Positions 33,806-49,268 of a stretch of DNA of 49,275 nt are shown here, one piece after another. Positions within the stretch are counted from its first letter, which is position 1; each line of letters begins with the position of its first letter. Made by a program: the position numbers and the translations under genes. The stretch spans positions 6,961 to 56,235 of the forward strand of contig PAJQ01000021.1 in assembly GCA_002710215.1 (NCBI GenBank), given 5' to 3'. Source of the stretch: Chloroflexota bacterium. Lineage in GTDB: Bacteria; Chloroflexota; Dehalococcoidia; Lucifugimonadales; UBA3495. The notes beneath the pieces are model-generated. The model was not told the origin of the DNA. It saw only the letters and a program-made list of their open reading frames with translations, and did not search any database.

Positions 33806-34957
33806 ATGACCCTGAAAATAGTGATCGCGCCACAAAGTTTTAAGGGGAATATCTCTGCTTTAGAGGCGGCCCGGGCGATTGAACGGGGCGTGCTGACTGC
33901 GGAGCCCGATGCGCAAACCGTATTGGCCCCGGTGGCCGATGGCGGCGACGGTACCCTGGACGCCTTGGTAGAGGGGACCGGCGGGCAGTATATCCGCAGC
34001 ATCGTAACCGGGCCGTTAGGCCAGCCCGTGGAAGCTATTTGGGGTGTGATGGGGGATGGCCGGACTGCGGTGGTTGAGATGGCCCAAGCATCCGGCTTGG
34101 CCATGGTGCCGCCCCGCCGCCGCAACCCTCGCGTTACCACCACCAGGGGGACCGGGGAGATCATCAAAGAGGCGCTGGACAAGGGTTTCGATCACATAAT
34201 CGTTGGTTTAGGCGGGAGCGCCACCAACGACGGTGGCGCCGCCATGGCGGCGGCCTTGGGCGCCCGGTTTCTGGACAGCAAGGGCCGGTCCCTTCCCGAC
34301 GGCGGGGCCGCTCTGGCTCGCTTGGACCGCATCGACGTTTCCAGGCTGGATCCCAGGTTGGCTGATACCACTTTCGTCGCGGCTACGGATGTGACTAATC
34401 CCTTGTGCGGTCCCACGGGTGCGTCGGCGATCTACGGTCCGCAGAAAGGAGCATCGGCAGAGGTGGTGGCCGAACTGGATGCCGCGCTGCTGAATTTCGG
34501 CAATCTGATTCTACGGGACGTCGCGAAAGATGTATCCAGCCACCCTGGAGCAGGAGCGGCTGGAGGGATGGGCGCAGGGTTGATGGCGTTTGCCGGCGCC
34601 CAGATCCAGCCGGGCATCGACATGGTCTGCGATGTGCTGGGCTTTGATACTCACTTGGACGGCGCTAGTCTGGTGATTACCGGAGAGGGCGGGGCTGACC
34701 GGTCGACTATTTTCAACAAAGCCCCGGTGGGGGTGGCCAGGCGGGCGTTGGCCAAGGGGGTTCCCACTATATTGCTGGCCGGGACCCTGGGGCAAGGCCA
34801 TGAGGAACTTTACAATCACGGCATCGCCGGCATAGTTTGCATCGCCGACCGGCCCATGAACTTCGACCAGAGCCTGCGCCGTACCGGTGAACTATTGGAA
34901 GCGGCTGCCCACCGGGCGATGCGGCTGATTGGGGTTGGTAGGGGGATGGGGGGCTGA
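33806..34957 (+). CDS. glxK: Glycerate kinase (GckA/GlxK type I family)
   Basis: 383 residues, the usual length for this family. 'IAPQSFKGNISALEAARAIERGV' at the N-terminus, 'PVADGGDGTLDALVEG', 'IIVGLGGSATNDGGAAMAAALGARF' and 'ITGEGGADRSTIFNKAPVGVARRA' are the signature segments. The enzyme phosphorylates D-glycerate with ATP, usually to 2-phosphoglycerate, feeding glycolysis from glyoxylate or glycerate. It is monocistronic here, with a -10 hexamer nine bases before the ATG and no Shine-Dalgarno, and it ends five bases before the convergent RelE pseudogene. Confidence 0.93.
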   Translation: MTLKIVIAPQSFKGNISALEAARAIERGVLTAEPDAQTVLAPVADGGDGTLDALVEGTGGQYIRSIVTGPLGQPVEAIWGVMGDGRTAVVEMAQASGLAMVPPRRRNPRVTTTRGTGEIIKEALDKGFDHIIVGLGGSATNDGGAAMAAALGARFLDSKGRSLPDGGAALARLDRIDVSRLDPRLADTTFVAATDVTNPLCGPTGASAIYGPQKGASAEVVAELDAALLNFGNLILRDVAKDVSSHPGAGAAGGMGAGLMAFAGAQIQPGIDMVCDVLGFDTHLDGASLVITGEGGADRSTIFNKAPVGVARRALAKGVPTILLAGTLGQGHEELYNHGIAGIVCIADRPMNFDQSLRRTGELLEAAAHRAMRLIGVGRGMGG

Positions 34958-34962
34958 AGTTA

Positions 34963-35220
34963 TTACCGGTAAGCCCGGCCTCGAGGCAGGACCCGGAGAA
35001 CCACGATAATACGGCTTGTCCGGTCGAGTTCGAAGAGTACGCGCCAAATCCCCACCCGCAACCGCCACTCATTCTCCCTGCCCCTTAACTAGCTGAAGTC
35101 TCCCTGTGTCGGAAATGCAGTCAGTGAATCCAGGCCTGTTCTGATGCGACCTTGGTCCCGCGCCGGTACGCCCTTCAAATCGCGCTCGGCACGAGGCGTG
35201 ACGACAATCCTCCACCGCAT
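34963..35220 (-). pseudogene. RelE/ParE-family toxin gene interrupted by one in-frame amber codon
   Basis: Reading from the ATG at 35220, the frame gives 43 residues beginning 'MRWRIVVTPRAERDLKGV' and ending 'GDFS', then TAG at 35091-35089, then without frame change 41 residues including 'LRGRENEWRLRVGIWRVLFE' and ending 'VLPRGRAYR' before TAA. Joined, this is a complete RelE-type toxin of about 85 residues; a Q (CAG) at the stop would restore it by one base. RelE toxins are ribosome-dependent mRNA endonucleases; the basic second half with the active-site Arg residues lies past the stop. It follows its antitoxin by six bases. It is most simply a recent nonsense-mutated pseudogene. Confidence 0.8.
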
Positions 35221-35226
35221 AGTCTG

Positions 35227-35478
35227 CTACTCGCTGGCCAGTTCTTCCCGTACCTCTTCCCAAGGGCGGGCCTCGCCACGGAGGTATTCCTGCCGGGCCT
35301 CCTCAATCATTGCCGTCTCCTCTTCCGTCTCCTCTTCGTCGTCCTCTGGCGCTTCCATGAATGACCGTAGGACGGGATCTCCCATGTTGCGCAGATATTC
35401 CAGATAGTGCTTGGCTACGGGTAGCTCTTTTTTCGGTAGCTCGTCGACCAGCCGGTGGAGGTCTTCTTTGATAGTCAT
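35227..35478 (-). CDS. Antitoxin-like protein paired with the broken RelE
   Basis: 83 residues. An N-terminal helical part ('IKEDLHRLVDELPKKELPVA') resembles the short antitoxins found before RelE/ParE genes. A strongly acidic centre ('EAPEDDEEETEEETAMIEEA') and a final 'EEVREEL' helix would wrap a basic toxin. The stop is six bases from the toxin ATG. No standard DNA-binding motif is obvious, so the antitoxin call rests on size, charge and position. A possible extended -10 (TGCTAACAT, minus strand, 35531-35523) lies about 45 bases upstream. The frame is intact although the toxin is not. Confidence 0.7.
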   Translation of the reverse strand: MTIKEDLHRLVDELPKKELPVAKHYLEYLRNMGDPVLRSFMEAPEDDEEETEEETAMIEEARQEYLRGEARPWEEVREELASE

Positions 35479-35534: not shown

Positions 35535-35936
35535 CTACCCCAACCTTTCCCCGACGAAGTCAACTACGCCCTGGGCCAACTCAATCGACCGGTCCGCGTC
35601 TATCCTGTCGAAGGCCTCAGACGGGATGCCGCTAGGCAGATAGCTGGGGTAGCGAGTGATCTCGTAGTATTTGTCCAGTTGCCTCGCCTCGCCTTTTATC
35701 GTGTCGAAGAACATCTCGAATAGCTTGGCGTCCTCGCAAAGGTCGATCAGGGAGTGGCCCCAAACGTCCTCGACGCCCCGGTGGTATAGGTACGCTTTGA
35801 CGGCCTTCTCCGCCGCCTGCTGGCCCATGAAACAGGCCATGTTGAACCGGCTGCCTTCCCGGAGAAAAGCGGCGTCGCTCATGTCCTGTCTTGCTTGTCG
35901 TAGCCAGCGAGCGCCTTCAGCCAAGTGATCAGGCAT
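35535..35936 (-). CDS. HEPN domain protein
   Basis: 133 residues matching the HEPN (PF05168) all-helical fold: '[19 protein letters not shown]', '[20 protein letters not shown]', '[11 protein letters not shown]' and '[14 protein letters not shown]'. The invariant-type polar residues are Arg53 and His61, seven residues apart, slightly longer than the RX4-6H spacing of proven HEPN RNases. It overlaps the upstream nucleotidyltransferase-like gene by eight bases, the arrangement of MNT-HEPN toxin-antitoxin pairs, in which HEPN is the RNase toxin. Toxicity cannot be judged from sequence. It is the last gene of the lut transcript. Confidence 0.82.
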
Positions 35937-36270
35937 TAAAAATCACCCTTCCATTGTCGCAAGCCAGTTTCAGCGCGGGCAGCGACTCACGGTAAATCTC
36001 GAATTCCTCGGGGGTATAAACCTGGGTATCAACCGCCACCCCGCTGTTGAGATGCCAGGAGAAAAAATCGGCCCGGCGTCCGAAGCACAGATCAGTTTTA
36101 TGGACGATGATGAGGTCGATCCGGCTATCGGGGGAGTAGTCCCCGGAAACCATATCACCCGTTAGGATGACTTGATCAACTCCCAGATTAGGCAGCATCG
36201 CTTCGATTCCTTCCAGTTCTTGTTCTAGCATCTGCTGCCTAAACTTGGTGAATCCCACTCGAACTGACAT
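35929..36270 (-). CDS. MNT-like nucleotidyltransferase-fold protein with altered active site
   Basis: 113 residues. It aligns with minimal nucleotidyltransferases (pattern GS...G.....SD.D), but the motif reads '[20 protein letters not shown]': the Ser after Gly38 is Asp39, and the first catalytic Asp is Arg50, leaving only Asp52. MntA antitoxins use these residues to AMPylate the HEPN partner, so this copy is predicted not to be catalytic and could neutralise HEPN only by binding. AGGGAG seven bases before the ATG fixes the start. It begins 11 bases after lutC on the same strand, so the pair is probably transcribed from the lut operon. Confidence 0.75.
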
Positions 36271-49171: not shown

Positions 49172-49268
49172 TGGCGGGAGTGCGAGGGAGTCGAACCCAC
49201 CTACCCCGCTCGTCACGAGGCACAACGGATTTGAAGTCCGCAAGAGCCACCGGGCCCCTTCCACTCCC
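49172..49268 (-). tRNA. selC: tRNA-Sec (selenocysteine), anticodon UCA
   Basis: 97 bases including an encoded CCA (49172-49174) after discriminator G. It has a long D stem closing a four-base CGGT loop, an anticodon arm with loop CTTCAAA (anticodon UCA, reading UGA), a long variable arm with a CTCG/CGAG stem, and a T loop TTCGACT. The size, variable arm and extended D stem are those of bacterial tRNA-Sec. Two positions in the acceptor/T-arm stack look mismatched: the eighth acceptor pair (G-G) and one T-stem pair (U-U). It is the substrate of SelA encoded at 4794-6158. A terminator lies downstream. The promoter is cut off by the window end. Confidence 0.93.

What the first reader, a model, noticed from the sequence alone, without database searches (positions are those of the whole stretch)
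34963..35478. RelE toxin gene with a single in-frame amber codon beside an intact antitoxin
Across TAG at 35089-35091 the reading frame continues without a shift through a textbook RelE C-terminal half ('LRGRENEWRLRVG'). Everything else is intact. One C-to-T change (CAG to TAG) explains it. Either this is a very recent inactivation, or a sequencing/population variant, or, less likely, the stop is suppressed to keep toxin levels low. Annotation pipelines would report only a 43-residue stub or nothing.
Basis: seen in the sequence. Interest (0 to 1): 0.55.

Follow-up and report, generated by a model that had tools for sequence, protein, structure and literature searches.

The report
Dead RelE toxin beside intact antitoxin
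A bacterial growth-halting (RelE-type) toxin gene is cut short by one internal stop codon while its antidote gene still reads intact; this is an ordinary stage in the decay of such gene pairs, although comparison with a sister species shows that the toxin and half of the antidote have also been swapped as a block at this site.

Summary
On the minus strand a RelE/ParE-superfamily frame (35220-34963) is cut at codon 44 by TAG (35091-35089) and continues in frame to TAA. Read through, it matches Pfam ParE_toxin (40 bits) and its model resembles RelE (Z 13.9 to Thermus RelE). An 83-residue antitoxin lies just upstream, intact.

Most likely it is a toxin pseudogene. TAG acts as a stop here: it is the commonest stop in the window (17 of 40 long frames), RF1 is present, no CTA-anticodon tRNA or PylS was found (assembly 85.8% complete), and the antitoxin itself ends in TAG in the toxin's frame. 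At the same site a congener has a toxin broken by a different stop, and a third genome only a trace of one: 3 of 3. Broken toxins recur in this family (13 of 58 units), and precedents are published.

Beyond the finding: between the two congeners flanks (94%) and antitoxin N-half (86%) match, but antitoxin C-half plus toxin are only 43-51% identical in DNA: a block replacement with a breakpoint inside the antitoxin gene. Units in four other genomes show the same discord.

The parts
35089..35220 (-). 43-codon 5' part of the RelE-type toxin frame, ATG to the in-frame TAG
   Evidence: no Pfam match on its own at E 0.1
35089..35091 (-). in-frame TAG (codon 44) that interrupts the toxin
   Evidence: none of the 11 in-frame stops seen in relatives lies at this codon
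34963..35088 (-). 3' part of the toxin frame, 41 codons plus TAA, with the RLRVG...VLPRGRAYR core
   Evidence: 25.9 bits to PF05016 alone; all 9 invariant and 6 of 7 nearly invariant columns lie here
35227..35478 (-). intact 83-aa antitoxin; ends in TAG, in the toxin's frame, 6 bases before the toxin's ATG
   Evidence: homologous antitoxins upstream of homologous toxins
34963..35367 (-). replaced segment (approximate limits): antitoxin C-part plus toxin, unlike the congener G001 inside matching flanks
   Evidence: identity profile; alignment; no blastn match between 35002 and 35311
33806..34957 (+). glycerate kinase gene, convergent neighbour that marks the site in relatives
   Evidence: PF02595 477.3 bits; used for synteny
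35535..35936 (-). HEPN-domain gene, the other side of the site
   Evidence: PF05168 94.4 bits; found beside the kinase in 41 of 43 loci examined (28 of 30, 13 of 13)
35929..36270 (-). MNT-like (nucleotidyltransferase) gene next to the HEPN gene, below the Pfam cut-off
   Evidence: PF01909 19.3 bits, cut-off 21; found in 23 of 30 kinase loci

Best explanation
This is a type II toxin-antitoxin pair of the RelE kind whose toxin gene has become a pseudogene. Translation of the toxin ends after 43 residues (first strand and two helices of the model), before the sheet and the C-terminal basic and aromatic residues conserved in the family, so no active toxin is made; the intact antitoxin is left solitary and may still repress its promoter or neutralise related toxins. 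Shown: the stop, the family, the predicted fold of the read-through frame, the open antitoxin, different breakage at the same site in two other genomes. Inferred: loss of activity, and any remaining role of the antitoxin. At this site the antitoxin C-part plus toxin have also been replaced as a block in one of two congeners (replacement shown by the sequence; that it came before the loss of both toxins is inferred).
For: Family and fold: PF05016 40.2 bits; profile hits in the PDB are five chains of RelE-type toxins (entry titles); model pLDDT 87.9, best match Thermus RelE Z 13.9, rmsd 1.6, 84 aligned. TAG is a stop: 17 of 40 greedy, nearly non-overlapping frames of 100 aa or more in the window end in TAG, 13 in TAA, 10 in TGA (frames, not proven genes); prfA 472.5 bits, cut-off 423.25; no CTA anticodon in 33 ARAGORN tRNAs at 34 Rfam places or in the window's one tRNA, tRNA-Sec; PylS best 28.8 bits, cut-off 178.15. 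Same site: G001, same genus, flanks 93.4 and 93.75% identical, has TAA at toxin codon 64 and TAG at antitoxin codon 25; G021 has, by eye, a frameshifted antitoxin and only a trace of toxin (profile 3.4 bits, not significant). So 3 of 3 occupied sites are broken, among 43 kinase flanks examined of the 44 genomes with the kinase, against 11 of 56 other units; Fisher p 0.011, chosen after seeing the data. Broken copies are usual: 8 of 83 non-own matches in a search of 147 genomes, own included, contain an in-frame stop. Precedents: a parE pseudogene beside ParD in Caulobacter and a non-functional YacB in Shigella (passage of PMC7354431).
Against: No reads: the base is unverified in an 85.8% complete, 76-contig assembly. 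The frame after the stop is still recognisable, which would also fit a very recent variant or an error. The tRNA set is incomplete (no alanine tRNA was called), so a suppressor tRNA outside the assembly is possible. G021's frameshift may be an assembly error.
Confidence: 0.88

Rival explanations
1. Sequencing or assembly error, or a minority population variant; the toxin is intact in most cells.
For: Assembly of 76 contigs, 85.8% complete; the frame after the stop still matches the family.
Against: The same site carries differently broken toxins in G001 and G021, and broken toxins recur in the family (13 of 58 units). The window's frame departs from the family at 5 of 29 conserved columns, more than 23 of 27 relatives, which fits some decay, or only distance.
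Confidence: 0.09
2. The stop is read through (amber suppression or recoding), which keeps the toxin at a low level.
For: The frame continues without a shift; antitoxin and toxin share one frame.
Against: No CTA tRNA found, no PylS, RF1 present, TAG the commonest stop in the window; suppression would also read through the antitoxin's own TAG and fuse the two proteins; the congener's toxin is stopped by TAA at another codon and none of the 11 in-frame stops seen in relatives lies at codon 44, so there is no conserved recoding site.
Confidence: 0.02
3. The 43-residue stub is a kept regulatory peptide (for instance one that binds the antitoxin) rather than debris.
For: The stub spans strand 1 and both helices of the model; the antitoxin is open.
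Against: No relative seen has a stop at this codon; the stub matches no family alone; G001's toxin breaks at codon 64 instead.
Confidence: 0.02

Closest known systems
RelE toxins of type II RelBE systems (Thermus thermophilus RelE 2khe, archaeal RelE 1wmi, M. tuberculosis RelE1 9g12 and RelE2 3g5o)
   Same: sequence profile and predicted fold over the whole read-through frame; antitoxin gene directly upstream
   Different: interrupted at codon 44; the antitoxin has no Pfam match and NCBIfam RelB-like matches are weak and in 4 of 12 family members, not in the window's own
Degraded type II pairs and orphan antitoxins (Caulobacter parE pseudogene with ParD; Shigella YacB with a premature stop), as reviewed in PMC7354431 (passages seen)
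   Same: toxin broken, antitoxin gene retained
   Different: other families and hosts; here the toxin is lost in three ways at one chromosomal site, and the pair has been partly replaced
HEPN/MNT pair next door (35535-36270)
   Same: borders the same site
   Different: separate genes, HEPN beside the kinase in 41 of 43 loci; not part of the RelE pair

Membership tests
RelE/ParE superfamily toxin | profile match over the length of the protein | tested here: met
   PF05016 40.2 bits, residues 5-84, read with X at the stop; 28 of 28 rows of A3 match
RelE/ParE superfamily toxin | RelE/ParE fold | tested here: met
   model of the read-through frame pLDDT 87.9; RelE 2khe Z 13.9, rmsd 1.6, 84 aligned
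RelE proper, as against YoeB, YafQ or ParE | closer to RelE than to the sister families | tested here: inconclusive
   the five PDB chains found by profile are RelE-type, and the first three fold rows are RelE (13.9, 12.8, 12.6), but YoeB/ParE 6n90 (12.1) and YafQ (11.9) follow within about 1 to 2 Z, ParE rows at 10.6-10.7
RelE/ParE superfamily toxin | conserved basic and aromatic residues of the C-terminal half | tested here: met
   R53, R55, R60, R80 invariant, R82 and Y84 nearly invariant in A3; that they are the catalytic residues of known RelE toxins is recalled, not tested
RelE/ParE superfamily toxin | uninterrupted gene giving a full-length product | tested here: not met
   TAG at codon 44
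RelE/ParE superfamily toxin | ribosome-dependent mRNA cleavage | not testable with these tools
   needs a bench assay
Type II toxin-antitoxin operon | small antitoxin gene directly upstream, pairing conserved in relatives | tested here: met
   homologous antitoxin within 650 bases upstream in 33 of 37 genome contigs toxin loci; none in L138-L141
RelB-type antitoxin | match to a RelB family model | tested here: not met
   window antitoxin: no NCBIfam match at E 0.1 and no Pfam RelB match; 4 of 12 relatives touch NF048017 weakly, best E 0.0011
Amber suppression / pyrrolysine recoding | tRNA with anticodon CTA | tested here: not met
   none in 33 ARAGORN tRNAs at 34 Rfam places of an 85.8% complete genome; one place gave no ARAGORN call
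Amber suppression / pyrrolysine recoding | PylS | tested here: not met
   best 28.8 bits, cut-off 178.15; one of 14 control genomes over the cut-off

The most novel reading that the evidence does not exclude
In this RelE-type family the antitoxin gene is a two-part platform: a conserved N-half that stays in place and serves as a recombination anchor, and an exchangeable cassette made of the antitoxin C-half plus its cognate toxin. Toxin specificity is swapped by recombination inside the antitoxin gene, toxins then die while the antitoxin is kept longer, and the site can be refilled: a swap-decay cycle at fixed chromosomal sites and in tandem arrays.
Probability: 0.4. Interest if true: 0.55.

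Novelty: new member of a known kind. Interest (0 to 1): 0.3.

Why it matters
The toxin itself is an ordinary casualty. What could matter is the comparison it opened: two congeners with about 94% identical flanks carry toxins only about 40% identical behind the same antitoxin N-half, and another genome carries a tandem array of such units. That would make the question of how toxin-antitoxin pairs change specificity without killing the cell directly testable, because toxin and the antitoxin half thought to bind it appear to move together.

Tried and rejected
Amber suppression, pyrrolysine and general TAG reassignment: tested, no support. Independent restart after the stop: the first in-frame start codon gives only 32 residues; judged unlikely, not tested further. 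Fast divergence instead of replacement for the window/G001 difference: rejected, since neutral decay cannot take a toxin to 43-51% DNA identity while the adjoining genes stay at 94%. Against a clean picture: the antitoxin N-half (95 of 111 bases, 85.6%) and the spacer before it (49 of 56, 87.5%) are less alike than the flanking genes (94%), so the left breakpoint may be blurred or mosaic.

PADLOC gave nothing for toxin, antitoxin or HEPN, only weak PDC-S09 matches for the MNT-like gene. The antitoxin profile found no significant PDB relative (a RelB chain at E 0.34). Paper searches were made, seen as listings (searches had 2 and 0 papers). None of the listed titles or abstract openings described exchange of an antitoxin C-half together with its toxin; this is a capped listing of an open-licence library, not evidence that it is unpublished. 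I saw passages of two papers, PMC2701414 and PMC7354431. Metagenome scans were capped at 0. The organism was not determined; the named relatives of the toxin are mostly Chloroflexi, Solirubrobacterales and other Actinomycetota assemblies (37 loci), and that call may leave out the window's own genome.

Limits of the counts. One search used loci L007-L035, L082-L147 and the window (L081, which repeats the window, was left out beforehand, and L082, which repeats L026, at the count). A unit needed an antitoxin profile match in one frame reaching position 70, so frameshifted antitoxins such as G021's are left out and antitoxin breakage is undercounted; relatives with other antitoxin types do not enter. 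Frameshifts in these assemblies may be errors. The 2 'partial' toxins were counted as not broken. In one search I gave 15 of the 29 loci L007-L035 (picked by eye for this antitoxin type) and all 37. The kinase genome G039 was not examined at the site; L083 has only about 100 bases beyond the kinase, and L091 showed no HEPN gene in the flank held.

Full report
What is there. The window lies in a 3.07 Mb, 76-contig assembly, 85.8% complete. On the minus strand an antitoxin frame (35478-35227, 83 aa) ends in TAG; six bases later, in the same frame, an ATG at 35220 opens the toxin. The toxin frame runs 43 codons, meets TAG at 35091-35089, and continues 41 codons to TAA at 34965-34963. Read with X at the stop it matches Pfam ParE_toxin (40.2 bits, cut-off 23); the downstream half alone still matches (25.9 bits), the stub alone does not. 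No NCBIfam model matches. By profile, five PDB chains match: 1wmi, 2khe, 3bpq, 3g5o and 9g12, which the entry titles give as RelE toxins. A model of the read-through frame (pLDDT 87.9) matches Thermus RelE at Z 13.9, rmsd 1.6, 84 residues aligned; M. tuberculosis RelE toxins follow at 12.8 and 12.6, then a YoeB/ParE toxin at 12.1 and YafQ at 11.9, so the fold alone does not set RelE apart.

Is the stop a stop? TAG ends 17 of 40 greedy, nearly non-overlapping frames of 100 aa or more in the window, more than TAA (13) or TGA (10). RF1 is present over its cut-off. At 34 Rfam tRNA places ARAGORN tRNAs, none with anticodon CTA; one place gave no call. The window adds a tRNA-Sec. PylS is not found over its cut-off. 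The set is incomplete (no alanine tRNA was called, for instance), so absence is not proof. The antitoxin's own stop is TAG in the toxin's frame, so efficient suppression would fuse the two proteins.

The same site elsewhere. The glycerate kinase neighbour was sought in 50 genomes of the family, own included: 44 have it. Flanks of 43 of these were examined with profiles of antitoxin and toxin (30 loci, 13); a few reach little beyond the kinase. Three carry this pair between the kinase and the HEPN gene: the window, G001 (same genus) and G021 (another genus of the family). In G001 the toxin has TAA at codon 64 and the antitoxin TAG at codon 25. In G021, by eye, the antitoxin is frameshifted and only a trace of toxin is left (toxin profile 3.4 bits, not significant). 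So 3 of 3 toxins at this site are broken, in three different ways, against 11 of 56 other units; Fisher p 0.011, chosen after seeing the data.

Background of decay. A search of 147 genomes, own included, gave 84 matches to the toxin, 83 besides its own; 8 of 83 hold an in-frame stop (4 TAG, 3 TGA, 1 TAA; G001's is one of them) (labels recounted). In a set of 58 antitoxin-bearing units, 43 toxins are intact, 5 have in-frame stops (window and G001 included), 8 are frameshifted and 2 partial; 57 of 58 antitoxins have no in-frame stop. The set is biased against broken antitoxins, as told under Tried and rejected. A review describes a parE pseudogene beside ParD in Caulobacter, a YacB toxin lost by a frameshift and premature stop in Shigella, and 2253 predicted orphan antitoxins in Klebsiella genomes, a high percentage of them probably degraded pairs (passages of PMC7354431). 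The finding is therefore a new example of a known state.

Age and selection. Between the window and G001, antitoxin codons 1-38 differ by 13 synonymous codons, one missense and one nonsense codon, which suggests that the N-half was under selection for most of the divergence. The toxin frame departs from the family at 5 of 29 conserved columns; relatives depart at 0 to 7, and 23 of 27 at fewer than 5. This fits a rather recent loss, or simple distance from the set.

A block replacement. DNA identity between the window and G001 is 94.5% in the HEPN gene, 94.1% in the last kilobase of the kinase gene, 87.5% in the spacer before the antitoxin, 85.6% in antitoxin codons 1-37, 72.2% in codons 38-55, 44.6% in codons 56-83, 42.9% and 50.9% in two toxin parts (codons 1-43 and 45-80), and 72.2% in the last five toxin codons plus stop. 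blastn finds no match between 35002 and 35311. The toxins are 39-40% identical in protein. Such a difference inside 94% flanks needs replacement, not mutation. The left breakpoint lies in the antitoxin gene, though it may be blurred; the right one lies at the toxin's end.

The same discord elsewhere. G107 has four tandem units on one contig (L009). Units 1 and 2 match over 682 bp at 85.9%, whereas unit 4 matches unit 2 only over the first 183 bp of the antitoxin (86.9%). For the 21 pairs among seven units from four genomes (G107, G133, G061, G078), fourfold-degenerate sites agree at 241 of 395 in the antitoxin N-half but 132 of 433 in the toxin. The pairs are not independent, they include two pairs of near-duplicate toxins, the units were chosen because their N-halves looked alike, and an eighth unit with a frameshifted toxin was left out. 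For the window and G001 the figures are 11 of 17 and 8 of 20, too few to tell alone. Shown: N-half and toxin of these units have different histories at silent sites. Inferred: recombination anchored in the N-half, and co-movement of the toxin with the antitoxin half that binds it (that the C-half binds the toxin is the usual rule for type II antitoxins, as PMC7354431 also says; not tested here).

Antitoxin family. This antitoxin type occurs upstream in 33 of 37 toxin loci of named assemblies. None of its 12 aligned members reaches a plausible Pfam family (best E 0.0029, DUF6058, in 2 of 12), and NCBIfam RelB-like matches are weak and in 4 of 12. It looks like a widespread, poorly annotated partner of RelE toxins, found here mostly in Chloroflexi and Actinomycetota assemblies.

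Verdict. A dead RelE toxin beside an intact antitoxin; the stop most likely functions as a stop. Ordinary in itself, interest 0.3; the block replacement deserves a separate look.

Noticed in passing
L009:633-2919 (G107, contig C131): Four tandem RelE-type toxin-antitoxin units with similar antitoxin N-halves; C-halves and toxins of units 1 and 2 are alike, the others differ; the third toxin is frameshifted, its antitoxin open.
   Followed up: partly
window 35535-36270: HEPN/MNT-like pair next to glycerate kinase: HEPN in 41 of 43 kinase loci examined, MNT-like in 23 of 30; a conserved neighbour rather than a patchy mobile pair.
   Followed up: partly
window 49172-49268: tRNA-Sec (TCA anticodon) at the window's end; selenoprotein genes with in-frame TGA may exist in this genome.
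   Followed up: no
L087, L106-L110; L092, L095, L096, L104; between kinase and HEPN genes: The junction holds other genes in other genomes: a protein of 148-149 aa in the first six loci, a 413-414-aa protein that looks like a CoA-transferase (name from recall) in the other four; in L084, L085 and L094 almost no spacer.
   Followed up: no
L115, L127, L133: Further toxins of the same family with in-frame stops (TAG, TAA, TAG) beside antitoxins with open frames, in named assemblies.
   Followed up: partly
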